The notes beneath the pieces are model-generated. The model was given only the letters and a program-made list of their open reading frames with translations. It was not told where the DNA came from and ran no database searches. This document shows, piece after piece, positions 25,686-38,632 of a DNA stretch of 63,477 bases. This stretch comes from Opitutales bacterium (GTDB lineage Bacteria > Verrucomicrobiota > Verrucomicrobiia > Opitutales > Seribacteraceae), in assembly GCA_029254745.1 (NCBI GenBank), contig JAQWWZ010000065.1:1-63477 (forward strand). Direction: 5' to 3'. Every line of letters starts with the position of its first letter. Position 1 is the stretch's first letter. A program made the position numbers and the translations under genes.

Positions 25686-26481
25686 TTTAAATAAAGTCAT
25701 CAGTCCGAGAGCAAAAAGTCTTTCTTTCACAAAACTCTTACCGAATATTTTTACAACGATCGGCCTTTGTACAGGCTTGACAGGTATAAGGTTTGCTTTG
25801 GATTCTGATTGGGAAAATGCAGTCATATGTATTCTTGTTGCAGCGTGCTTCGATATGATCGATGGGTTGTCTGCAAGACTGTTAAGAGCATTTTCAAAAT
25901 TTGGTGCCGAACTTGATAGCCTTGCTGATGCCATTAGTTTCGGCGTTGCTCCTTCTATAATCTCTTTTTTGTGGATAAAAAGTTCCCTCATGATAGATAA
26001 CAGTAGCGAAATTCTTGGTTGGTATTGGATACCCTTTTTGTTTTATACAATGTGCTGTGCATTCCGTTTAGCCCGTTTTAATGTCATGGCTCAGGACAAC
26101 TCCAATACTTTGTCTCCGAAAGGATATTTCACCGGTGTACCAGCCCCCGCTGGTGCAGGCTTGGTCCTATTACCTTTAGCATTTAGTTTTATTTGTGATC
26201 GTTTTGAATTAGATTATAATATTCTTGATCACTCTTCTTTGTTATTATTTTGGGTAGGCTTTATTTCAGTTTTGTTGATTTCCCAAATCCCAACATTTTC
26301 CTTCAGAAATATTCGATTGAGTGTTTCGTCACGAAAAGCATTGATTGTGCTGCTTGTTGTCTGCTTGTTTGTGGCAGTTTTTTTTAAAGAAATGTGGTTA
26401 TCTTTGTTTGCTGTAGGAATCTTTTATTTGTGCAGTATTCCAGTGTCTCTGATATCTTACAAAAGAGATTTACTAAATTAG
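25642..26481 (+). CDS. pssA: CDP-diacylglycerol--serine O-phosphatidyltransferase
   Basis: PssA makes phosphatidylserine from CDP-diacylglycerol and L-serine in the inner membrane. The CDP-alcohol phosphatidyltransferase signature is exact: D-x2-DG-x2-AR-x8-G-x3-D-x3-D, read here as DMIDGLSARLLRAF followed by SKFGAELDSLAD. About seven hydrophobic segments follow, and the FTGVPAPAGAG motif of the bacterial type II enzyme is present. The start is a TTG at 25642; no ATG occurs before the core domain. Its TAG stop overlaps the TAA of the convergent TPR gene (TTAG). Confidence 0.92.
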   Translation: MLAGICGLATYCIPSLNKVISPRAKSLSFTKLLPNIFTTIGLCTGLTGIRFALDSDWENAVICILVAACFDMIDGLSARLLRAFSKFGAELDSLADAISFGVAPSIISFLWIKSSLMIDNSSEILGWYWIPFLFYTMCCAFRLARFNVMAQDNSNTLSPKGYFTGVPAPAGAGLVLLPLAFSFICDRFELDYNILDHSSLLLFWVGFISVLLISQIPTFSFRNIRLSVSSRKALIVLLVVCLFVAVFFKEMWLSLFAVGIFYLCSIPVSLISYKRDLLN

Positions 26482-27764
26482 TCTTTGAGAATTTGTTTAA
26501 TTATTTGCTCATGAAGTAAAGAGTTTTGAAGTTGACCAAGTTCTTTATATGCAAGTGAAAGTTGCTCGTGTGCATTTTTATTATCCCAATCATATTGTGC
26601 AGACTTTAAAAAATAAACCAGTGCCTCTTGCGTACAATTATCTTTGTGCAACAAACCCATTTTAAGAAGGGCATCGCTATTTTGACTATTTATATTTAAC
26701 GCCAATTGAAGGAAGTCTCTCTGAATCGGCATGGTTTTAAAACTATGAAATATTAGGCATATGTTTGACATGCAAAGCTTTGCCTTATTTTTTTTGACTA
26801 TAAGCTTCTTTGCTTTCCTAAATTGATTTCTTGAAATAAAAAGATCATATTCATCATTAATATTACTTAGCAGATTATTGTACTGGTTAAATGATTCGAG
26901 TAGATATTTTTTCGCTCGGGATTTTTTATTTAGCTTTAAAAAGCAAATACCTTTCTTTTCATTCAGGAAAAAAGAATTTTTTCCAGTCGACCCAATCTTA
27001 TTATAATATTCAAATGCTAGCTGGAAGTTCTTTTTTTTAAAATAACAATCTCCGAGTAATTTGAGCGATTTATTTGATTCAACTTGCTGTTCTAGTATTT
27101 TAATCGCTTCATCAAATCGCCTTTTTCGATAACTAATTTTAGCAATGTAGAATCGTAACTCGTTATTAAAAGGATATTTTTTGATTATCTTACCAAAATC
27201 TTCAAATATTTGACACTCACTTCTATAAAACGGAGTTCCTCGAAGGAAATCACTGTATTCAATTAAGATATTGTACTTAAGAATTAGTGGTTTTTCGACT
27301 TCCTGAAGCAGAGAAATACTTGTTTCAATTAAGTAAAATATTCTTCGGAAATCAGATTCAGTATCTAGAGATTTAGCGAGCTCATAGTAATGCCAACCAT
27401 TTCTGGAGTCATTTTCTACAAGTAGGTTGAGGTAGGTGAAAAGATTCTCTGTATTCCCACGACAACTTTCAATCTCATGTCCTTTGGTGAGAAATTCAAC
27501 GGTGGGTTTCAACCTTATTGACAGTGCTATGTAATAAGATGCTTCGTCATACTCCTTTTTTTTAAATGCGAGAAGAGATTTTATAAAGCAAACATTTTCA
27601 CATTCCGTTTCTGATTCAAACTTTTGAAGAGTATCTTCTACCTTAGCAAGATCGTTATTACTTAGATGAAACATGCAAGATAGTTTAAATATATCTTGGT
27701 TTTTTCGGTCGCTAGTAAGAGCTTTTTCTAAGTGATAAGAAATTTCTTTTTCACATACTTGCAT
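26478..27764 (-). CDS. TPR-repeat protein (428 aa)
   Basis: A soluble helical-repeat protein with no signal peptide, made of degenerate tetratricopeptide repeats, for example SFFLNEKKGICFLKLNKKSRAKKYLLESF and NSDALLKMGLLHKDNCTQEALVYFLKSA. The N-terminal half is poorer in consensus residues than the C-terminal half. TPR proteins act as scaffolds for partner proteins; no enzyme domain is visible. It is the last gene of a minus-strand set after the rod protein, the adenylate cyclase and another TPR protein, 23 bases downstream of the latter, so it probably serves the same assembly. Confidence 0.8.
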   Translation of the reverse strand: MQVCEKEISYHLEKALTSDRKNQDIFKLSCMFHLSNNDLAKVEDTLQKFESETECENVCFIKSLLAFKKKEYDEASYYIALSIRLKPTVEFLTKGHEIESCRGNTENLFTYLNLLVENDSRNGWHYYELAKSLDTESDFRRIFYLIETSISLLQEVEKPLILKYNILIEYSDFLRGTPFYRSECQIFEDFGKIIKKYPFNNELRFYIAKISYRKRRFDEAIKILEQQVESNKSLKLLGDCYFKKKNFQLAFEYYNKIGSTGKNSFFLNEKKGICFLKLNKKSRAKKYLLESFNQYNNLLSNINDEYDLFISRNQFRKAKKLIVKKNKAKLCMSNICLIFHSFKTMPIQRDFLQLALNINSQNSDALLKMGLLHKDNCTQEALVYFLKSAQYDWDNKNAHEQLSLAYKELGQLQNSLLHEQIIKQILKD

Positions 27765-27787: not shown

Positions 27788-29299
27788 TTAAGGAAGTATT
27801 TGATCTTTTTTTTTGATAAGTAGGAGTGCGATTTCGTAATGTGCTTTTGCGAACTCATTGTCAATCTTGATGCTTTTCTGAAAGTTTGCTAAAGCTTGTG
27901 AATATTTCTCTTGGATATTTTGTATCTTGCCAATTTTGTAGTAAGCTCTGTAAAAATTAGGATTTTCTCTTATAGCTAATTTTAAGTGTTTTTCCGCCAA
28001 AATTAAATCTGGTTCTTTTACCAAAGTCCCATCATTTTTCAGTTTTTCACCTTTAATTAATAAACAAGCAAAATTATAGTGACATTCAGACATACCAGGG
28101 TCGATTTCAAGGGCAGTTTCATAATTCCGGAAAGCTTGATCAAATTCTGAAGGGTTTCTTAGCGATTTTGCTAAGTGATAATATGCTTTCGAGAAATTTT
28201 GGTCTATATCTGTAGTTTTTTGGAAATGAATTTTTGCTTCATTAACTTCGTTAAAGTTTAGACAATGATGGGCTAATTCATAGTACGCATTTGCATACTC
28301 TGGATCAATTTCGAGTGACTTGTAAAAATGCTTCTTTGCTGTGGCGGAATCACCATTTTCGCTGTTAATCTTTGCTAGATAATAATGTGCTTCAGCGTTT
28401 TCATCTTCATGGGTGATCGATTTCCCTAGATTGTCTGCAGCTGTTTTATGTGAATTCTGATAATAATAAATTTTCCCAATTTGGAAGTATGATTTCGGAT
28501 TACATTCATTATTAATAATAGATTCTTGAAAGTATTTTTCGGCATTTTTGATATCATCAATCTTTAAATAAATCATTCCTAGCAAGTACTGTGCTTTCCA
28601 ATATTTAGGACTTAGTCTTATTGCTTTACTGAGATTTTTTTTTGCAGAATTTAATTCACCTTTTTGATAGTCAATTTTAGCAATGTTGTAGAGTGCTTTA
28701 AAATTGTCAGGTTTATATTTTAAGACCTTCTTAAAGTGACTCTTAGCTTCGGGAATATTTGTTCGATCAATAATTGTACCTTCTTTGTCCGTGGCTATTC
28801 CTCCTGTTAAAAGTTTTGCCATGTAGTAGTGAGCATCCGTATATTTTTCGTCGATATCGATTGCTGTTTCATAGTTTTTCCTGGCAGATTCAAAATCGTC
28901 AGGATGAGTAAGTAATCTAGCTTTATGAAAATATGCCTTTGCGTAGTTCTGATCAATTTCGGTTACCTTATCAAAGTTATTTTTTGCTTCCTCTATATCC
29001 TTAAGTTTAGTTAATAGCTTTCCATAATAAAAATAAGCATCAGAAAAATTAGGGTTTATTTCTAGTGAGTTAAGAAAGTGATTTCTAGATTCCTCTAATT
29101 CATTTGATTTCATCAACGAGACAGCCAACTCGCATTCTGCTTCGGCAAAATTTTTATTTATCGATACCGCCTTTTGGAATAAAGAGAGCGCATCTTGCTC
29201 ATTACCTTCCAGCTTATTTAACAGACCAAGTTCAAAGTATGCTTCTGAATAATTTGGATCTAAATTAATCGCTTTCTCCAAATGTGTTCTCGGGTTCAT
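27788..29299 (-). CDS. TPR-repeat protein made of a duplicated seven-TPR block (503 aa)
   Basis: Nearly the whole protein is about 13 consecutive 34-residue TPRs (consensus A-x-A-x-Y-x-x-A-K...A-x-x-x-F-x-K-A-x-x-I-D-x-x-Y). Two repeats carry a 12-residue insert after helix A (LLTGGIATDKEGTIIDRTN and LLIKGEKLKNDGTLVKEPD), and they are seven repeats apart. Their neighbours also match pairwise (DDFESARKNYETAIDIDE with SEFDQAFRNYETALEIDP), so an approximately 250-residue block has been duplicated. No signal peptide or catalytic motif is present. It begins 13 bases after the cyclase gene, which suggests a scaffold for that enzyme or the rod protein. Confidence 0.85.
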   Translation of the reverse strand: MNPRTHLEKAINLDPNYSEAYFELGLLNKLEGNEQDALSLFQKAVSINKNFAEAECELAVSLMKSNELEESRNHFLNSLEINPNFSDAYFYYGKLLTKLKDIEEAKNNFDKVTEIDQNYAKAYFHKARLLTHPDDFESARKNYETAIDIDEKYTDAHYYMAKLLTGGIATDKEGTIIDRTNIPEAKSHFKKVLKYKPDNFKALYNIAKIDYQKGELNSAKKNLSKAIRLSPKYWKAQYLLGMIYLKIDDIKNAEKYFQESIINNECNPKSYFQIGKIYYYQNSHKTAADNLGKSITHEDENAEAHYYLAKINSENGDSATAKKHFYKSLEIDPEYANAYYELAHHCLNFNEVNEAKIHFQKTTDIDQNFSKAYYHLAKSLRNPSEFDQAFRNYETALEIDPGMSECHYNFACLLIKGEKLKNDGTLVKEPDLILAEKHLKLAIRENPNFYRAYYKIGKIQNIQEKYSQALANFQKSIKIDNEFAKAHYEIALLLIKKKDQILP

Positions 29300-29312: not shown

Positions 29313-31577
29313 TTACTTAGTTGTCATAACCCAAACTCCAGACCAATCCCCTTTGGGGGGATTTTTTTTCATGTGAGCACACCGATCAAGATAGAGTTGG
29401 GCGGCTTTATCGTTAGGGTTTATTTTTTGAACATTTTTAAAAGATTTTATGGCCTGATCCCATTTTCCGTCTGTCCATGATCTATACCCTTCGTTAAAGA
29501 CTCCAAGGGCGTCTGCTAGGTTTGGGTACGAATTTTCGTCATGATAGTCTAAGACCTCATATACCCCAACGGGCACTGTTTTTCCTTTCACGATCATATA
29601 GTCGACTTGGCGGGTTCTGTATGTAGCTTTTACAGCTTTTTGGGTGAACTCGCTTATCAGAATTTGTGCGCCGTATTGCTTGCATGCACTTTCAATACGA
29701 GCTGCCAAGTTCACCCCATCTCCAATAACAGTGTAGTCCATCCTTTTGGGCGAACCAATATTTCCAGAAACAATAGAGTCCGTATTAATACCCATTCCAT
29801 GATCAATGGGCATTTTCCCTTCCGTCGCTCTTTTTTCATTAAATACAATTAAATCTGTCATCATTCTGATAGCAGCCCTTACTGCCCGATCAGGATCGTC
29901 ATCATGGGGAACTGGAGTGCCAAAAATACACATCATTGCATCGCCAATAAATTTATCAAGCATTCCTCCTTCATCTGTTATACAGTCCACCATGATTGTA
30001 AAGTACTCGTTCAATAGCTTGACTGTTCCTTGCGCGCCAAGTTCTTCAGTAATGGTAGTAAAGCTTCTGACGTCTGAAAATAGGACAGTCCCCACGCTTT
30101 GCTTTCCACCCATTATGTCATTCCCGTCTCCACCCATCATAAGCTGGTCGGCAAGTTCTGGGTCCATGTATCTTGACATTGTGGACTTCATCCTTTTCTC
30201 GGAACTGATATCTTCGATCATAAGCATTACTCCGAGACTTTCTCTCTTTTGACCTACTAATGGCATCACTGACACATTTACTGAAAGTGTTTCATCTTCA
30301 ATTTTTATTTCAGCATCTAAAAAGTCTTCCTGTTCTTCGACTGAACCTAGTTTTTGGAGTAACCATGAATTTGCATCAGTCAGTACGTCAGAAGCTTTTC
30401 TTCCTAAAACCTCATTCAAAATGGGAGATTTAAGAATGCGGAGTCCAGCCGTATTACATGTTCTGATAATACCGGTTTCATCTAAGGTAAGAACGGCATC
30501 GTGCATACTAGATAAAATGCTCTCAGAATAATTTTTCTGATTTTGAACATCGTCGAATAATTTTGCATTCTCTATGCCCATTGAAATTTGAGATGTAAAG
30601 GCTGCTAGTCTTTTTTCATCCTCTGCGTTAAAAGATCCGCCTCTTTTATTAAGCACTTGGCTGACTCCAATGGTTTTACCTTCTTTGTTAAATACCGGCA
30701 TGCACAAAATTGATCTTGTAAAAAAGCCAGTTTGTTTATCAAAGCTTGGGTTAAACCTAAGGTCTGCATAGGCATGGGGAATATTTACAGCTTTTCCCGA
30801 AGTAAAAACAGTGCCAGCTATGCCGAGGTGGTTAGGGAATTTTATAACAGATTTTTCGTCAAGCCCTTCGCCAACTTCTGTGTATAATTCATTTGTTTTT
30901 TCATCATTGATGAAAAGAGTAGCTCTCTCACAATCAAGCATCGTAGAGATTGTGGTGATAATTTTCTGTAATAGGGGAGTGAGTTCTAGTTCAGAGGAAA
31001 CTTGAGATACAACATCCAGAAATTCCAATTCTTGCTTTCTCGCAGCTTCAATTTGCTCGACGATAATATTTCCCTGAATGGCAATAGCAGCCTGCTCCGT
31101 CATAGCTTCAAGTAAGTCTAGGTCTTCTTGTTCAAATTCACCGTCTATCTTGTTGAGTATCTGAGATACGCCAATTTCTTCACCTGAAACAGTCCTAAGG
31201 GGAGCACAAAGGATACTTTTCGTTCGAAATCCCGTTCTGACATCAACTGCTTTGTTAAACCTCTCGTCTTTGTATGCGTCGTGAATAATAACACCTTCAT
31301 CTTGAGTAAAGACCCATCCGGCGACGCCTTTCGTATTTAGAATTCTTATTTCACGCCTGAAATTTCCCTGAGCAATTCGGGAGTATAGCTCACCGGTGGA
31401 TGCATCATTAAGAAAAATTGTTCCTCTTTCTGCACCGATGGTTGAAGTGGTTATTTTTACTAAAACTTCAAGAGCTTCATCTAGTGATTTGGTCTTTGCT
31501 AGATCGTTGGTTACCTGCAGGAGCATTTCAGCGAATCTAGATGTTCTCTTAGATTTATTATCTTTTTTTTCTGCCAT
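29313..31577 (-). CDS. GAF-GAF-PAS class III adenylate cyclase with TPR-like tail (CyaB1-like)
   Basis: A 754-residue soluble cyclase: GAF at about 34-170, GAF at 202-340, PAS at 350-460, catalytic domain at 493-650 and a TPR-like helical pair at 687-735. This is the layout of cyanobacterial CyaB1. The second GAF holds the cyclic-nucleotide motif NK-x4-F-x3-DE exactly (N310, K311, F316, D320, E321); the first has NK-x4-F-x3-DL. Metal ligands D502 and D546, adenine-selecting K542 and D614, and N623 and R627 are all in place, so it should be active and make cAMP. I start at ATG 31577, one base after the rod-protein stop. The upstream TTG-type extension is rejected. Confidence 0.93.
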   Translation of the reverse strand: MAEKKDNKSKRTSRFAEMLLQVTNDLAKTKSLDEALEVLVKITTSTIGAERGTIFLNDASTGELYSRIAQGNFRREIRILNTKGVAGWVFTQDEGVIIHDAYKDERFNKAVDVRTGFRTKSILCAPLRTVSGEEIGVSQILNKIDGEFEQEDLDLLEAMTEQAAIAIQGNIIVEQIEAARKQELEFLDVVSQVSSELELTPLLQKIITTISTMLDCERATLFINDEKTNELYTEVGEGLDEKSVIKFPNHLGIAGTVFTSGKAVNIPHAYADLRFNPSFDKQTGFFTRSILCMPVFNKEGKTIGVSQVLNKRGGSFNAEDEKRLAAFTSQISMGIENAKLFDDVQNQKNYSESILSSMHDAVLTLDETGIIRTCNTAGLRILKSPILNEVLGRKASDVLTDANSWLLQKLGSVEEQEDFLDAEIKIEDETLSVNVSVMPLVGQKRESLGVMLMIEDISSEKRMKSTMSRYMDPELADQLMMGGDGNDIMGGKQSVGTVLFSDVRSFTTITEELGAQGTVKLLNEYFTIMVDCITDEGGMLDKFIGDAMMCIFGTPVPHDDDPDRAVRAAIRMMTDLIVFNEKRATEGKMPIDHGMGINTDSIVSGNIGSPKRMDYTVIGDGVNLAARIESACKQYGAQILISEFTQKAVKATYRTRQVDYMIVKGKTVPVGVYEVLDYHDENSYPNLADALGVFNEGYRSWTDGKWDQAIKSFKNVQKINPNDKAAQLYLDRCAHMKKNPPKGDWSGVWVMTTK

Positions 31578-31578
31578 G

Positions 31579-33972
31579 TTAATTTTCAAGTTTAATTCGT
31601 AAGTCAATTATAGTCGACTGTAACTGCAACATTTCCGATTCTTTTTTTTGCAGATCGTCTTGCCTTAATTGTTCGTAATGTGCTTTGTTTTGTTCAAGCT
31701 CATCGCGGAGATTTGAAACCATTCTTCGAAAATGGTTAATTTCATTTTGATTCGAGCTCACAATATTTTGGACTGCTTCCTGTTTATTAATTTCTGAACT
31801 TTCTAAGTTCAATCGAAGTTCCGCTAGATTTTTTTGCAAAGCTTTTATCTCATTCTCTCGTTTAAGTTTTGACCGTTGAAGCTCTACTTCTTTGGAAACT
31901 TTGATTGCTTCAAGTTTATTCCGCAAATCTAAAATTGACTTTTTTAAATGGGAGTGCTCATCCAAATGCGTTGATATCGATTTTTGGATAGCTTCGGAAT
32001 TTTGATGTTTCTGAAATTCTATTTCTTTTCTTAGTTGAGATATACTTTTTTGTAATTGTTGAATTGTAGATTCTCTTTGAGAAATAGCGTTTTGCACTCC
32101 AATGTCTTTTTCACTTTGAAGGCGGTCCATTTTTTCTCGAGTTTGGATGAGACTTTTCCTGAGTGAAACTTGTTGGGCATTTGAACTGGCTTCTGCTTTT
32201 TGTAATGAATCTTGAAATTTAAATTCGGTCTCATCAAGTTTTGTTCTCAAAGTTGAAATGGTGCTCTTAAGATTCGCGTTTTCTCTCTCATTTTGAGCTT
32301 CTGACATTTGAAGTTTGTCCGCCTCATAATCTTTCATTTTCTGAAGCTGTTCACGCATTCTATAAAGGGACGATTTAAGCTGATTAATTTCGGATTGAGA
32401 TTCACTTTTGCCCTTCTGCACTAGGTCATCAGTTACAACTTTAGAATGTTCTAATTCATTTCTTAAGCTTTGTGCTAAACTTTTAAGAGTAAAAACCTCA
32501 CTTTCTTTCGAAGCCTTAACTTTTTGAACGCTATCCTCGTATCTAGCCTTTTGTTGATCAAGTGATTCACGAGTTTGGCTCAGTGAAAATTTGAGTTGTT
32601 GGATTTCTCTATTGGTTGAAGATTTGAACTCTTGTATTTTGTTATCTTTGTCCGAGGATTCCTTTTCCAGTTCTTCTCTTAATTCAATAATTGTATTTTG
32701 AAAGGATTTGTTTTCGCTATTAATGGCTGAGGTTGCCCTTTGAATTTTTTCTTCCTCTTTAGCTTTTAGGGCTTCAAGATTGCCACGTGCTGTTGATAAA
32801 GATTGTTTCAATAACGAAATTTCAGAGCGGTATCCGTTTTCTACCTTTTGAATAGCTGAGTTTTTTTCAAAAGATGATTTATCTAGTTCTTCCCTGAGTT
32901 CTTGCATCGAATTCTTCAAAACTGTAACTTCAATCTCAGAATTAGCTTTTACTTTCTGTATTCTATCCTCTTCTAAATTCTTCTGAAGCTCGAGATTATC
33001 ACGAGTCTTTGAGAGAGTCTGTTTAAGCTGCTTAATTTCGTCGTATGTCTCTTTTTTTGCTGATTGGGCAATTTCTGCTGCTTTATTTTTTTGATTTTCT
33101 AGTTCATTACGAATGCTCGTGACAGTATCTTTAAGACTTTTGATTTCGAGTGTGTAAGTAGAGTATCTTGTTCGAACTTTGTCCTCCTCCTCTTCTCTTG
33201 TTTTGACTAGTTTTTCTCGTGTATTAGTTATTGATAGCTTAAGAGAAGAAATTTCCTTAGACTTACTTGAAATCGCTTTCTGAACCGCATCATCTCTCGA
33301 GTTCTCAAGTTTTTCTAATTCATATCTTAGGTTTGCGATCGTAGTTTTAAGAGCTCTGCCTTCAATTTCTGACTCTGTCTTAATCTTTTGTGCTTTTTGA
33401 TCATTTGAATTATTTAAATCTTCGATTTTTTGCCGTAGTCTTAATAGAGAGTTTTTAAGTTCGGTAATTTCATTTGAAGCATTTCTTGTAGATGCCTGAG
33501 CAGCGTCTTGAATTTCACACTGGCTTTTATCAAGTGCTTCTCGAAGCACCTCTACCTGTTTTTTTAAACTATTTAGTTCAACATTAAAAACGGAGGTCAA
33601 CTGTTGTTTTTGTTGATCCGCAGTTTGAGACTTCTTCTCTAATGAAGACCTTAAATCAAGGATAAGTTTTTTTAGCTGCTTTTGTTCATCAAGGGACTTT
33701 TGGATAACTTCATGATTTTCTTTTTCATGAGTTACAATTTTATGGTCCAATTCGTCCCTTTGCTTTTCAATTGAGGTCTTTAAGAAATTAATCTCCAGTT
33801 GCAGCTCCTTTTCTTTAAATTGAACTAATTCCTCTGATTCAGTCTCCTTTTTAACAAGTTCATCTCTAAGGGATAAAATTGTTTGCTTGAGAAAACGATT
33901 CTCATGGCTGAGTAAATCGGCCTCTTCTTGTGTGTGCGGAGACATCTCATTTAATATTTCAGAAATAAACAT
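31579..33972 (-). CDS. Giant coiled-coil rod protein of 36-residue repeats (797 aa)
   Basis: After a 23-residue head, the whole protein is 21 complete tandem repeats of exactly 36 residues plus a final half repeat of 18 (23 + 756 + 18 = 797), with no insertion or deletion. The consensus is E-I-x-x-L-K-x-S-L-x-x-x-R-x-x-L-E, then about 13 charged residues, with Q-K near position 28. Units alternate between a LREELE type and a TRExL type. There is no signal peptide, membrane segment or catalytic motif. The cyclase gene starts one base after its stop, so the two are translationally coupled. The family is unknown to me; a cytoplasmic filament or scaffold is the likely role. Confidence 0.85.
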   Translation of the reverse strand: MFISEILNEMSPHTQEEADLLSHENRFLKQTILSLRDELVKKETESEELVQFKEKELQLEINFLKTSIEKQRDELDHKIVTHEKENHEVIQKSLDEQKQLKKLILDLRSSLEKKSQTADQQKQQLTSVFNVELNSLKKQVEVLREALDKSQCEIQDAAQASTRNASNEITELKNSLLRLRQKIEDLNNSNDQKAQKIKTESEIEGRALKTTIANLRYELEKLENSRDDAVQKAISSKSKEISSLKLSITNTREKLVKTREEEEDKVRTRYSTYTLEIKSLKDTVTSIRNELENQKNKAAEIAQSAKKETYDEIKQLKQTLSKTRDNLELQKNLEEDRIQKVKANSEIEVTVLKNSMQELREELDKSSFEKNSAIQKVENGYRSEISLLKQSLSTARGNLEALKAKEEEKIQRATSAINSENKSFQNTIIELREELEKESSDKDNKIQEFKSSTNREIQQLKFSLSQTRESLDQQKARYEDSVQKVKASKESEVFTLKSLAQSLRNELEHSKVVTDDLVQKGKSESQSEINQLKSSLYRMREQLQKMKDYEADKLQMSEAQNERENANLKSTISTLRTKLDETEFKFQDSLQKAEASSNAQQVSLRKSLIQTREKMDRLQSEKDIGVQNAISQRESTIQQLQKSISQLRKEIEFQKHQNSEAIQKSISTHLDEHSHLKKSILDLRNKLEAIKVSKEVELQRSKLKRENEIKALQKNLAELRLNLESSEINKQEAVQNIVSSNQNEINHFRRMVSNLRDELEQNKAHYEQLRQDDLQKKESEMLQLQSTIIDLRIKLEN
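31582..33903 (-). repeat. Tandem 108-bp coding repeat array (36-residue coiled-coil units)
   Basis: The array runs from codon 24 to the last codon of the rod gene: 21 units of 108 bp and one of 54 bp. Units begin with E (or Q/T in two cases) at strict 36-residue spacing, for example EISLLKQSLSTARGNLE, EIQQLKFSLSQTRESLD and EIKALQKNLAELRLNLE. Sequences have diverged well beyond DNA-level identity, so the array is old, yet the length of each unit is conserved perfectly. Confidence 0.9.
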
Positions 33973-34048
33973 TTTGTAAATAACAAGTTAAGCATCTCCA
34001 TTATTGTGCTTGCAAAGAATTGAACAGATATTTTGGTAAGTGATAGTT

Positions 34049-35251
34049 ATGTCCCCAAAGCTCAAAGATTCCTTATTTATTTGCATTGTTTTAGTGTTGG
34101 CAATGTCGACTTATTCTTGCGGAAATTCTGACCCTCAAGTGGTGAGTGAGAGCTCACGAGATAATCCAGCAGACAGAAAAGTAACAAATCTTTTAATGTC
34201 CTCTGCGAGTAATGTGAGTGACCTTGAGGATCTTTTAAACGACAGCGATGAGTCCATTTCTCTTGTCGTTGAAGGAGCAGAACCCATTTCTGAGCGCATA
34301 CTTCCAGTAAATTTTAAAATCATTGAAGCTGAGGAAGTGCTTGAAATTCCAACTAATACCGAAGCCGAGGTTGCCTTACAAAACCTTGAAGAATCCACGA
34401 TTGAACATCGAAGAAGTATCGAAGAATTGAGGAAAATTAATGCAAATAAAGATACAACTATCGCTTCACTTTCTTCAATTAATGACGAACTTCTCGCTGA
34501 GGTTCGACGATTGAAAGGAATGCCTGCAAGAGAAGCCAAAATTATTTCATCTCCTGCCGAGTTACTTGCCTCGGAAGAAGTTGTAGATCCAGGGCTTCAC
34601 TCAGAGATAAATAATCTTAAAAATAGTCTGTTTCTAAAGTCTAATGAAATCAAAGATCTAAGGTATCGAAATGATTCCCTAGAAGCTCGGATTTCCAGCC
34701 TTGAAAATAGCCCAAAAACGAAGATATTTCTTGCTGATCCAGAACTCAATTCGCAGGAAAACCGATTCAGTCAGAATTACGAAAGGGTATCAAAAGGATC
34801 GTTCCTCGGAACATGTTCAATAAACTTTGATGCAGTTGTCACTTCGTACAATGGAAAAAGTAAGGAAGCTTTTTACACTGAATTTTTTGTGCTAAACACT
34901 AACCTTGATTCAATTCTATCCGCCGGTAATCTCAACCTATCTGAATTTTCAGCTCTCGAATCATTTTCAGAGTTGTGGGCACGTTCTAGAAAAAATTCTT
35001 TTCTTTACCCTAAACTCCAAAAGAATATCAGAACTTTGCTCCTCTCTGAGGTCGAGAAGGGCAATGGTAGGAGAGTTAGAACCGATATAAACGGATCGGC
35101 ATCTATTTCAGGGATTAATAAAGGTAACTATTTTATCATCGGTACTGCAGCTCTTGGTAAAATTGGGGTAACATGGAATGTTCCAATTGTTTTAGACCAA
35201 GGGGTGAACAAAGTCTCTTTGACTCTTGCAAATGCATCATGGAGTATGTGA
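34049..35251 (+). CDS. Putative lipoprotein with central coiled coil
   Basis: A 400-residue exported protein. The N-terminus (SPKLKDSLFICIVLVLAMSTYSC) looks like a lipoprotein signal with Cys near residue 24, although Tyr at -2 makes the lipobox imperfect. Residues of about 115-230 hold two coiled-coil stretches (IEHRRSIEELRKINANKDTTI and SEINNLKNSLFLKSNEIKDLRY). The C-terminus ends in a beta-rich domain (GSASISGINKGNYFIIGTAALGKIGVTWNVP). Start is ATG 34049; GTG at 34040 is possible. It diverges from the rod gene with only 76 bases between them, so shared regulation is plausible. Function unknown. Confidence 0.75.
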   Translation: MSPKLKDSLFICIVLVLAMSTYSCGNSDPQVVSESSRDNPADRKVTNLLMSSASNVSDLEDLLNDSDESISLVVEGAEPISERILPVNFKIIEAEEVLEIPTNTEAEVALQNLEESTIEHRRSIEELRKINANKDTTIASLSSINDELLAEVRRLKGMPAREAKIISSPAELLASEEVVDPGLHSEINNLKNSLFLKSNEIKDLRYRNDSLEARISSLENSPKTKIFLADPELNSQENRFSQNYERVSKGSFLGTCSINFDAVVTSYNGKSKEAFYTEFFVLNTNLDSILSAGNLNLSEFSALESFSELWARSRKNSFLYPKLQKNIRTLLLSEVEKGNGRRVRTDINGSASISGINKGNYFIIGTAALGKIGVTWNVPIVLDQGVNKVSLTLANASWSM

Positions 35252-35336: not shown

Positions 35337-37505
35337 ATGACGGCACAACAATCATCTGACCAAAAGAAACTCCAACTTACCCTAAAACAGAAGATTAGCA
35401 TTTTGCTGTCATTTTCGAAAGATAAGGTTGTAGAACAAATTCAATGTGTATGGTTCATCATTTTATACCTCATCGTTTTCCAAGTACTTGTCCTCGGGTT
35501 GCCTATTGTATATTCTCTAATGATAGCCGTTGGCATCATGATTGTTATAGTTGGTTTGGCTTTTTTTATGGAAGGTCTCAGGCTTGGATTGATGCCTCTA
35601 GGCGAGACTTTAGGATCTACTTTACCTAGAAAAAAGATCTTTGGAATTCCTTGTTTGCCAGCAAGTTTGGCGTTTGGTTTTGTTTTGGGAGCATTTGCAA
35701 CTTTTGCTGAACCAGCGATTGGAGTGCTGAGAGCCGCAGGTTCTGGCGTGGACCCAACTGCAGCACCTCTCCTGTGGACTATTTTAAATACTGGAGCTGC
35801 TATGCTTGTAAATTGTGTCGGGGTAGGGGTAGGCATCGCCGTCCTACTCGGAGTGTTAAGATTTTACAAAGGTTGGTCTCTTAAACCATTTATATATGCG
35901 GGTGTAATTATACTTTCATGCATTACTTTATATATGCAGTTTTCAGACGATAGGCTGAGGCATGTATTGGGACTTGCTTGGGACTGCGGTGCAGTCACGA
36001 CTGGACCGGTTACAGTACCCTTGGTTCTTGCACTAGGCATAGGAGTGTGCCGGATTGTATCTACAGGAGGTTCTAGCAATACGGGATTTGGTGTGGTAAC
36101 CTTAGCATCATTATTTCCGATCTTAGCTGTAATGTGCTATGCCCTTTATTTATTTAATGGAGATAATTATTACATGGCCAAACTCTCCAAAGCAGAATGG
36201 CATTTGAATGCAGGAGAATACGGAAAAAATTACCCTAAAAACTACCAGAAGTTTGGCGATATTGTAGCAGCTGAAAGGATGGCAGCCTCTGGAGATGTTG
36301 ATGAAGATGCTTTGTTTTGGTCTCTTTCGAAAGTTGAAAGAGAGAATGTAGACCAATACTTACAGAAAAACAAAAAGCTTCCTGAGGGTTACACAATTAA
36401 AACCAGAATCACAGAAGGGAAGATTGTACCGAGTGCGTTGCCTAGCGATAGTGATGGTGTACGCGAGAATGTGGAAGTCCAAGGTGCGAAAGCTTATGTT
36501 GTGAGAGAGGGGTTTAAAGCACCAGATGGAGTGTGGGATGAAGGGACAGATATTGCGACTGCGTTTACTAATAACTTCGATTTCTTCCCCAACACTTTTA
36601 AACCACAAGAGGATAAAAATGGAAACGGCATCCTTGATCCTGGAGAAGACTTTTATGGTTTCAATCAAGACGGTAGCGTTGATTATAATGAAAAAAATGG
36701 TGAACTTGATGGTCCTGATCAGGACAGAGGAGCATTAGAAGGGGCGGTTTGGGCGATAGTTCCACTGTGTTCTATTTTACTACTTGTGTTAATGGTGGGA
36801 CTTAGGCAGAAACCAAAATATTTAGACGAGTTATTTATCGGGATTGGATGTGCTGTCATTGGGATGTGCCTTTTTAATCTCGGAATAGCCTTGGGTTTAA
36901 CTCCGTTGGGTGAACAGTTAGGTGGAAATGTAGTGTCTAGCTTTACCTCAATTCAACCTTGGCAAAGCGAAGGATTTGTTGATCCTCTATTTAAGTCATC
37001 CACCGCCGGCAAGTGCCTTGCTATTCTCTTTGGCTTCATATTAGGTTATGGAGCAACTTTGGCAGAGCCAGCGTTAAATGCACTAGGATCTACCGTAGAA
37101 AAAATAACGGTTGGTGCGTTTAAGAAAAACCTATTGATGCAAGCAGTTGCAACTGGAGTTGCGTGTGGAATTGCCACAGGTGTTGCCAAAATCGCTTTTA
37201 ACTTAGAATTATGGTACTTGTTGATACCTCCGTATGCTTTACTCCTAGTATTAACTTTCTTTTCAAGTGAAGACTTCGTTAACTTTGGCTGGGACAGTGC
37301 GGGTGTCACAACAGGACCAATTACCGTGCCTCTTGTTCTTGCTATGGGGTTAGGCATAGGGGCCAAGACTGGTGCTATTGACGGCTTTGGAGTTCTTTCA
37401 TTGGCCTCAGTCGGGCCTATCATTACAGTCCTCACAGTTGGTCTGCTTGTTCGCAAAAAACCCAAAGTAGATGACGCAACAGAACTAGAAATGGAGAAAG
37501 CATAA
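35337..37505 (+). CDS. Duplicated DUF1538 membrane protein with EF-hand-like insert
   Basis: A 722-residue polytopic membrane protein with two DUF1538 modules, about residues 40-290 and 485-710. Each carries the family marks EGLRLGLMPLGE/ALGLTPLGEQLGG, FAEPAIGVL/LAEPALNAL and an AxTTGPxTVPLVLAxGxGI segment. Between them lies a roughly 190-residue soluble insert with DKNGNGILDPGE at 426-437, a good EF-hand calcium loop, and a second acidic DGSVDYNEKNGE stretch. DUF1538 proteins are thought to be transporters, but the substrate is unknown. A PII-like regulator gene starts 2 bases after its stop, which suggests gated transport. Confidence 0.88.
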   Translation: MTAQQSSDQKKLQLTLKQKISILLSFSKDKVVEQIQCVWFIILYLIVFQVLVLGLPIVYSLMIAVGIMIVIVGLAFFMEGLRLGLMPLGETLGSTLPRKKIFGIPCLPASLAFGFVLGAFATFAEPAIGVLRAAGSGVDPTAAPLLWTILNTGAAMLVNCVGVGVGIAVLLGVLRFYKGWSLKPFIYAGVIILSCITLYMQFSDDRLRHVLGLAWDCGAVTTGPVTVPLVLALGIGVCRIVSTGGSSNTGFGVVTLASLFPILAVMCYALYLFNGDNYYMAKLSKAEWHLNAGEYGKNYPKNYQKFGDIVAAERMAASGDVDEDALFWSLSKVERENVDQYLQKNKKLPEGYTIKTRITEGKIVPSALPSDSDGVRENVEVQGAKAYVVREGFKAPDGVWDEGTDIATAFTNNFDFFPNTFKPQEDKNGNGILDPGEDFYGFNQDGSVDYNEKNGELDGPDQDRGALEGAVWAIVPLCSILLLVLMVGLRQKPKYLDELFIGIGCAVIGMCLFNLGIALGLTPLGEQLGGNVVSSFTSIQPWQSEGFVDPLFKSSTAGKCLAILFGFILGYGATLAEPALNALGSTVEKITVGAFKKNLLMQAVATGVACGIATGVAKIAFNLELWYLLIPPYALLLVLTFFSSEDFVNFGWDSAGVTTGPITVPLVLAMGLGIGAKTGAIDGFGVLSLASVGPIITVLTVGLLVRKKPKVDDATELEMEKA

Positions 37506-37507
37506 TC

Positions 37508-38632
37508 ATGACTGACTTAGTAAAATCATCTGGGGTTTCCCTTTTAAACTTAATTCTTCCAAAGGAATCAGTTGTACGCGTTTCCAATGCAGTTTCTAAA
37601 GCTGGTGCGAAAGGCGTTTTTCAAATATCTGCACGTGGTTCTGTTCTCACTGAAGGTGGATTTCTTCAAAGAATGTTTCCACCTCCTGCTCCAGAACAAT
37701 TGCTTTTACAAGCCCTTGTACCTGACGACATTATTAACCAAGTTACTGAAGCCGCCATCGAATCTGGAAGCCTCGATAAGGTGGGCTCAGGTGCCGTATT
37801 TAGTATGAGTTGTAATGATGCTCAAGTTTCAAAATCTTTTCCTACTAATATTTCGTCCGATTCTAACAATAGTGAAGACAATCAAAGTGCTGCAAGCTTA
37901 GAGGCAATATGCTGTATTTGCGAAAAAGGTATTGCCGATGATATTGCAAAGGCAGCCCTTCAAAGCGGTGCACCTGGGCCAACAGTTACTTTTGGAGAAG
38001 GTGGTGGTGTTCGAGATAAAATTCCAATGCTTCGTATTACTAAAGGTCCTGAAAAAGAATTTGTTTGGTGTGTTGTCGATAAGTCAGAAGCAGATGACAT
38101 ATTTAGCAACATGGCGAGGGCGGGAAGAATTACAGAACCGGGTCGTGGGTTTATGTATTCAATCCCAGTTCATTCCGGTCTTATTAATGTATCAAGCACA
38201 GTTTCTTCCTCTACGCATGGAGCGAATATGGAGCAGGTCATTTCTGCTTTAGACGATTTGAAAGGCGGTAAGGATTGGCGAGTAACGCCTGATGTATCCA
38301 AATCGAAGTCTCTCAAATCCACTTTCCTGAATGACCTAGTTGGACTCTATTGCATTGTACCTAGAGACCACTACGATGAAGTGTATGATGCTATTTTAGA
38401 AACAGGTGCACCCGGTGTTAGTACAAACTTCGGTGTCATGATTGATGCGGAGTCTGATGACAATGAGCAGCAACAAAATGAAGAATGGGCATTGGTTTAT
38501 ACTTCAGTTGGACCTGATAGTGTTGAGTCGTTAAGGGATGTGGTATCGAGCAAGATATCTTCACTTGGTATCAAGCAATTCGCTTTTTACACATTGCCTA
38601 TCCCTAAGGCCCTTACCTATCTCGGGGGATAG
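37508..38632 (+). CDS. Protein with three tandem PII-like domains
   Basis: A soluble 374-residue protein. Three PII (GlnB)-like units can be traced, at about residues 10-102, 131-221 and 276-368. Each has a first strand followed by a helix of the type P-x-E/D-x-x-x-x-V-x-x-A-x-x-x-A/S-G-A (PKESVVRVSNAVSKAGAKG, CEKGIADDIAKAALQSGAPG, PRDHYDEVYDAILETGAPG) and a second half-repeat ending in a strand such as GRGFMYSIPV. The T-loop positions vary (the second holds FGEGGGVRD). Linkers are Ser/Asn/Gln-rich. Directly downstream of the DUF1538 gene, it is probably its regulatory partner. The ligand is unknown. Confidence 0.8.
   Translation: MTDLVKSSGVSLLNLILPKESVVRVSNAVSKAGAKGVFQISARGSVLTEGGFLQRMFPPPAPEQLLLQALVPDDIINQVTEAAIESGSLDKVGSGAVFSMSCNDAQVSKSFPTNISSDSNNSEDNQSAASLEAICCICEKGIADDIAKAALQSGAPGPTVTFGEGGGVRDKIPMLRITKGPEKEFVWCVVDKSEADDIFSNMARAGRITEPGRGFMYSIPVHSGLINVSSTVSSSTHGANMEQVISALDDLKGGKDWRVTPDVSKSKSLKSTFLNDLVGLYCIVPRDHYDEVYDAILETGAPGVSTNFGVMIDAESDDNEQQQNEEWALVYTSVGPDSVESLRDVVSSKISSLGIKQFAFYTLPIPKALTYLGG

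What the first reader, a model, noticed from the sequence alone, without database searches (positions are those of the whole stretch)
31579..33972. Gap-free array of 36-residue coiled-coil repeats forming a predicted ~115 nm rod
I aligned the protein by eye. After 23 residues it divides into 21 exact 36-mers plus 18 residues, with no indel in 774 residues. 36 residues equals ten helical turns at 3.6 residues per turn and is neither a heptad multiple (35 or 42) nor a pure hendecad. Such a period predicts an almost unsupercoiled, straight bundle. At about 0.15 nm rise per residue the array would be roughly 115 nm long. Strict unit length despite strong sequence divergence implies selection on register, as in filaments with regular binding sites.
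Basis: partly seen in the sequence, partly recalled or inferred. Interest (0 to 1): 0.75.

Follow-up and report, generated by a model that had tools for sequence, protein, structure and literature searches.

The report
Straight 36-residue helical rod beside cyclase
The window encodes a long protein made almost only of one helical unit of exactly 36 residues repeated 21.5 times; in at least eight bacterial phyla this kind of protein sits beside one particular cAMP-making enzyme, so it is probably that enzyme's dedicated rod-shaped partner or scaffold, a pairing I found described nowhere.

Summary
The protein is 23 + 21x36 + 18 residues without an indel (the real start is probably Met10). Self-similarity peaks at every multiple of 36 (z 17-21) and hydrophobic residues recur every 3.60 residues. 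AlphaFold2 folds the last 171 residues as one unbroken helix (pLDDT 94.8). Starting from the cyclase, 72 of 73 relatives with upstream DNA and at least about 50% identity carry a 36-residue array just upstream; three ~40%-identity relatives do not. Starting from the array, all 43 positive genomes among about 840 sampled in four phyla carry it beside this cyclase, once as a fusion. Arrays hold about 4-26 units; of 915 spacings 912 are exactly 36 and 3 are 72. In Opitutales the true period is 72 and all 33 complete arrays have even unit numbers. No Pfam, curated NCBIfam, PDB-sequence or paper match describes it. Best reading: a conserved signalling module in which a nearly straight helical rod organises or regulates the cyclase. 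That function, the number of strands and any filament are inferred, not shown.

The parts
31579..33972 (-). 36-residue-repeat coiled-coil rod protein (open frame 797 aa; probable real start Met10 at 33945)
31582..33903 (-). the array itself: 21 full 36-residue units and a final half unit of 18 residues, no indel
33904..33945 (-). 14-residue head (MSPHTQEEADLLSH) kept in Opitutales homologues
29313..31577 (-). GAF-GAF-PAS class III adenylate/guanylate cyclase; ATG one base after the array's stop codon (open frame reaches 31607)
27788..29299 (-). TPR protein, next gene downstream; TPR genes also follow the cyclase in other Opitutales, in Fidelibacterota and in one Magnetococcales locus (orthology not tested)
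26478..27764 (-). second TPR-like protein, probably the same operon

Best explanation
The protein is a dedicated, rod-shaped helical partner of the GAF-GAF-PAS adenylate cyclase encoded directly downstream. Shown: an exact 36-residue unit; one continuous helix in prediction; near-obligate gene neighbourhood across phyla; one natural array-cyclase fusion. Inferred: chains associate in parallel through a stripe of hydrophobic columns (2, 5, 9, 12, 16, 27, 30) into a nearly straight rod, about 5.3 nm per unit; the fixed polar residues (Glu1, Lys6, Arg13, Glu17, Gln28) recur along one flank at each step and serve as regularly spaced sites for self-assembly or for docking the cyclase dimer; the rod thereby clusters or positions the cyclase and tunes cAMP output. 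The confidence refers to 'dedicated rod-like partner or scaffold of this cyclase'; the docking geometry alone I would put at about 0.3.
For: From the cyclase side, 72 of 76 relatives with usable upstream DNA carry an array; the four without are three at ~40% identity and one with a truncated cyclase match. From the array side, an array profile found 43 genomes (5/194 Verrucomicrobiota, 24/299 Pseudomonadota, 4/199 Planctomycetota, 10/149 Fidelibacterota), all with the cyclase beside it. Order is always array then cyclase, often with touching or overlapping stop and start. One open frame holds both (L119). A cNMP-binding protein gene overlaps the array start in L068; a metallo-beta-lactamase-fold domain is fused to four units in L046. 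The g/e charges favour parallel pairing: Glu1-Lys6' score 0.82 in Opitutales. Arg13 is 99-100% conserved in 919 units.
Against: No direct evidence of physical contact. The full-length model is poor (pLDDT 73) with two low-confidence breaks at 243-310 and 512-527. The cyclase is far more constrained (dN/dS 0.016) than the rod (0.12), and closely related arrays hold 16 to 24 units, so exact total length is not critical. Column 23 is polar, so the hydrophobic stripe has a gap.
Confidence: 0.5

Rival explanations
1. Cytoskeletal filament: rods polymerise with a stagger of whole units into an intracellular filament, and the cyclase only reads its state or is co-regulated with it.
For: Exact unit length; in Opitutales the 15-20' charge pair is attractive at odd unit staggers (+0.24, +0.18) and repulsive in register (-0.13).
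Against: The staggered preference is absent outside Opitutales; arrays of only 4 units (about 20 nm) occur; every array found lies by one cyclase type, which a general filament would not need.
Confidence: 0.2
2. Direct allosteric regulator: the rod acts as an N-terminal coiled-coil extension in trans, pairing with the cyclase's N-terminal helix to set the register of the GAF dimer; the number of units hardly matters.
For: The natural fusion places the array N-terminal to the GAF domains; most arrays end in the same half unit 18-38 residues before the C-terminus; unit number varies.
Against: A regulator of this sort would not need up to 26 strictly periodic units under selection; no repeat-like segment was seen in unfused cyclases.
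Confidence: 0.2
3. Plain spacer or single stable helix with no specific binding, kept periodic mainly by repeat duplication.
For: Highly charged sequence; repeat number changes between relatives; weaker constraint than the cyclase.
Against: Units within the window array share only about 26-30% identity, so recent duplication does not explain the exact period; Arg13 and Gln28 are kept across phyla; conserved polar columns have the lowest dN/dS, 0.03-0.05.
Confidence: 0.08

Closest known systems
CyaB1/CyaB2 adenylyl cyclases of Anabaena (tandem GAF, class III cyclase)
   Same: The neighbour gene has tandem GAF domains, a PAS domain and a class III catalytic domain; its second GAF carries a full NKFDE-type motif, NK-x4-F-x3-DE. 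CyaB2's tandem GAFs bind cAMP, which raises activity (PMC4411481).
   Different: No rod partner is reported for CyaB1/CyaB2 in what I could search; cAMP binding by this cyclase is untested.
FimV/FimL hub proteins of the Pseudomonas aeruginosa Chp-CyaB pathway
   Same: Non-catalytic proteins that localise a pathway which activates an adenylate cyclase (PMC12632253).
   Different: From memory: not built of 36-residue coiled-coil units and not gene neighbours of the cyclase; they act through PilG. No sequence comparison was run.
Coiled coils with 18/5 periodicity (7+7+4 residues)
   Same: The 36-residue unit is two 18/5 blocks, 3.60 residues per turn.
   Different: 18/5 is described there as a local effect of a stutter in a heptad background (PMC4786415); here it runs through the whole protein.
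Generic long bacterial coiled coils (SMC, coiled-coil-rich filament proteins)
   Same: Long charged helical protein; weak SMC-like score, 25 bits.
   Different: Far below the SMC cut-off of 567 bits; no ATPase heads; strictly periodic.

Membership tests
36-residue-repeat cyclase-associated rod (family proposed here) | at least 3 consecutive units spaced exactly 36 with Arg at column 13 | tested here: met
36-residue-repeat cyclase-associated rod (family proposed here) | gene directly upstream of a GAF-GAF-PAS cyclase | tested here: met
CyaB1-like class III adenylyl cyclase (neighbour gene) | tandem GAF, PAS, class III catalytic domain with metal-binding Asp, substrate Lys and Asn/Arg motifs | tested here: met
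   domains; FSD 510, KFIGD 552, GDGVNLAAR 629 read directly
CyaB1-like class III adenylyl cyclase (neighbour gene) | activation by cAMP bound to GAF | not testable with these tools
   motif only: NKFDE-type motif complete in GAF-B, incomplete in GAF-A
SMC / Rad50-type ATPases | score above the curated cut-off; ATPase heads | tested here: not met
   25 bits against 567; the whole protein is repeats
Alpha-solenoid repeat (TPR-like, 34-36 residues) | two helices per unit joined by turns | tested here: not met
   no Pfam match; one uninterrupted helix over 4.75 units
Straight multi-stranded coiled coil | oligomeric bundle with near-zero supercoil | tested here: inconclusive
   3.60 period and charge pattern fit; oligomer not modelled
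Intermediate-filament-like cytoskeletal protein | polymerises into filaments in vitro | not testable with these tools

The most novel reading that the evidence does not exclude
A previously undescribed bacterial cAMP-signalling scaffold found in at least eight phyla: rods with one docking or assembly site every 5.3 nm array adenylate cyclase dimers, and evolution sets the array size by adding or removing whole 36-residue (in Opitutales 72-residue) units.
Probability: 0.3. Interest if true: 0.85.

Novelty: new variant of a known kind. Interest (0 to 1): 0.6.

Why it matters
If the pairing is functional, a widespread class of bacterial adenylate cyclases has a dedicated rod-like partner that has gone unannotated, perhaps because coiled coils are treated as low-information sequence. 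It gives a simple genetic handle on how bacteria localise or cluster cAMP production, and a natural series of nearly straight helical rods of about 4 to 26 equal steps, useful for studying coiled-coil register and as building material.

Tried and rejected
Alpha-solenoid (TPR-like) reading: rejected, one unbroken helix. SMC fragment: rejected. Programmed frameshift joining rod and cyclase: rejected, because the distance from the array end to the aligned start of the cyclase varies from -37 to +180 bases. Antiparallel pairing: e columns are basic and g columns acidic, which disfavours it in a two-stranded coil; a whole-residue lateral score does favour antiparallel contacts (0.12 against 0.065), was not tested for significance and is left open. 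PDB sequence search: no hit. Plasmid search with a short homologue: no hit. Literature searches for the pairing: nothing relevant. Fold search not run: a lone helix would match any helix.

Full report
OBSERVATION. The open frame 31579-33972(-) encodes 797 residues that divide exactly into 23 + 21 x 36 + 18. Mean BLOSUM62 self-similarity at lags 36 to 288 in steps of 36 is 0.9-1.2 against -0.38 for shuffles (z 17-21); no other lag up to 300 exceeds z 6.3. Hydrophobic residues show one dominant period, 3.60 residues, the tenth harmonic of 36. Two refinements: similarity at 72 exceeds that at 36, and close homologues begin at the equivalent of Met10, so the real start is probably 33945.

STRUCTURE. 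AlphaFold2 on the last 171 residues with 41 homologues gives one helix from residue 2 to 170 with mean pLDDT 94.8. The full-length prediction is helical but of low confidence, with two uncertain breaks at 243-310 and 512-527; I do not read these as real hinges, since these stretches hold no Pro and a single Gly (521). The hydrophobic columns 2, 5, 9, 12, 16, 27 and 30, with weaker 19 and 34, fit a 7+7+11+11 register, that is 36 residues in ten turns. [quoted passage not shown] Acidic g columns (Glu1 0.91, Glu15 about 0.45) and basic e columns (Lys/Arg6 0.88, Arg13 1.00) fit parallel pairing of chains. Strand number is not determined.

NEIGHBOURHOOD. The array's stop codon is followed one base later by the ATG of a GAF-GAF-PAS class III cyclase. 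Its catalytic motifs look intact and its second GAF has a complete NKFDE-type motif. Two TPR proteins follow on the same strand.

RELATIVES, CYCLASE FIRST. A scan of 84,980 species genomes with the cyclase returned 78 loci. Two start at a contig edge. Of the other 76, 72 have an adjacent or nearby array (up to about 1 kb away in L033 and L042); the exceptions are L071, L077 and L079, only about 40% identical, and L069, whose cyclase match is truncated. The genome of L071 has a second cyclase, 56% identical to the window's, and that one does have an array. Hosts include Verrucomicrobiota, Pseudomonadota (alpha, beta, Magnetococcales, Mariprofundales), a deltaproteobacterium placed in Myxococcota, Margulisiibacteriota/UBP8, Fidelibacterota (Neomarinimicrobiota), Armatimonadota, Planctomycetota and Riflebacteria.

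RELATIVES, ARRAY FIRST. A profile of array C-termini was run on about 840 genomes of four phyla with no reference to the cyclase. It found 43 genomes (5 of 194, 24 of 299, 4 of 199, 10 of 149), and in every one the array lies beside this cyclase. In G744 the array is cut by a contig end and apparently resumes on another contig that carries the cyclase. The sample centres were genomes already known to hold the pair, so the frequencies are not unbiased; the linkage does not depend on that. In G243 (L119) three degenerate units and the cyclase form one open frame; there the third unit is at spacing 38, the only departure from 36 that I saw.

STRICTNESS. With a position matrix and no constraint on spacing other than a minimum of 25, 912 of 915 successive spacings are 36 and 3 are 72, each a unit below threshold and still in phase; further loci gave 180 and 2 (partly the same genomes). 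The matrix was built from the same data, which could favour good-looking units, but the spacings were free. Unit numbers run from about 4 to 26.

EVOLUTION. Between the window and L043 the array has dS 0.90 and dN 0.11, the cyclase dS 0.91 and dN 0.015. Within the array the conserved polar columns have dN 0.03, core columns 0.085, the rest 0.137: constraint falls on the repeat-defining positions. In Opitutales units of the same parity are more alike than units of different parity (0.319 against 0.288), not so elsewhere (0.393 against 0.398), and all 33 complete arrays have an even number of units (16, 18, 20, 22 or 24), although the tree implies several independent changes. This may reflect duplication in 216-bp steps rather than function. 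Columns 15 and 20 alternate in charge so that parallel pairing is attractive at odd staggers and repulsive in register; related sequences are not independent, so I treat this as a lead only.

MECHANISM. Shown: the repeat, its helicity in prediction, its conservation, its linkage with the cyclase. Inferred: physical association and a scaffold or regulatory role. Supporting hints are the fusion, the overlap with a cNMP-binding protein gene in L068 and the fusion of four units to a metallo-beta-lactamase-fold domain in L046. I rate a dedicated rod partner or scaffold at 0.5, a filament at 0.2, a trans allosteric arm at 0.2.

KNOWN OR NEW. No Pfam family matches the protein, NCBIfam gives only far-below-cut-off SMC scores, no PDB sequence matches, and the literature searches aimed at the pair or its parts found no account of it (open-access papers only). 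CyaB1/CyaB2 are the nearest known cyclases; FimV/FimL are the nearest known non-catalytic organisers of a cyclase pathway that I found. I call it a new variant of a known kind: coiled-coil partners of signalling enzymes are familiar, this strictly metric, phylum-spanning one is not.

Noticed in passing
L046:6683-7969: Metallo-beta-lactamase-fold domain (HWHWDH motif) fused to four 36-residue units, directly before the cyclase; possibly an opposing hydrolase tethered by the same rod.
   Followed up: partly
L119 (G243:C36): Single open frame joining a degenerate three-unit array to the GAF-GAF-PAS cyclase.
   Followed up: partly
L068:6002-6946: Protein with cyclic-nucleotide-binding domains whose stop overlaps the start of the array gene.
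   Followed up: partly
L036:6545-7201 and L034:768-1505: Fidelibacterota carry a further gene of about 200-245 aa, without Pfam match, immediately before the array (four loci).
   Followed up: no
window 31582-33903 and Opitutales homologues: 72-residue alternation with even unit numbers and alternating charge at columns 15 and 20.
   Followed up: partly
window 34040-35251 (+): Divergent gene for a putative lipoprotein (lipobox-like N-terminus) with a coiled-coil segment.
   Followed up: no
window 35337-38632 (+): Tandem DUF1538 membrane protein with a Ca-binding-like insert (DKNGNGILDPGED...NQDGSVD), followed by a P-II-like protein of 374 aa.
   Followed up: no
L168 (G823) and L169/L170 (G744): Fidelibacterota arrays of 26 and probably 30 or more units, longer than the window's.
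   Followed up: partly
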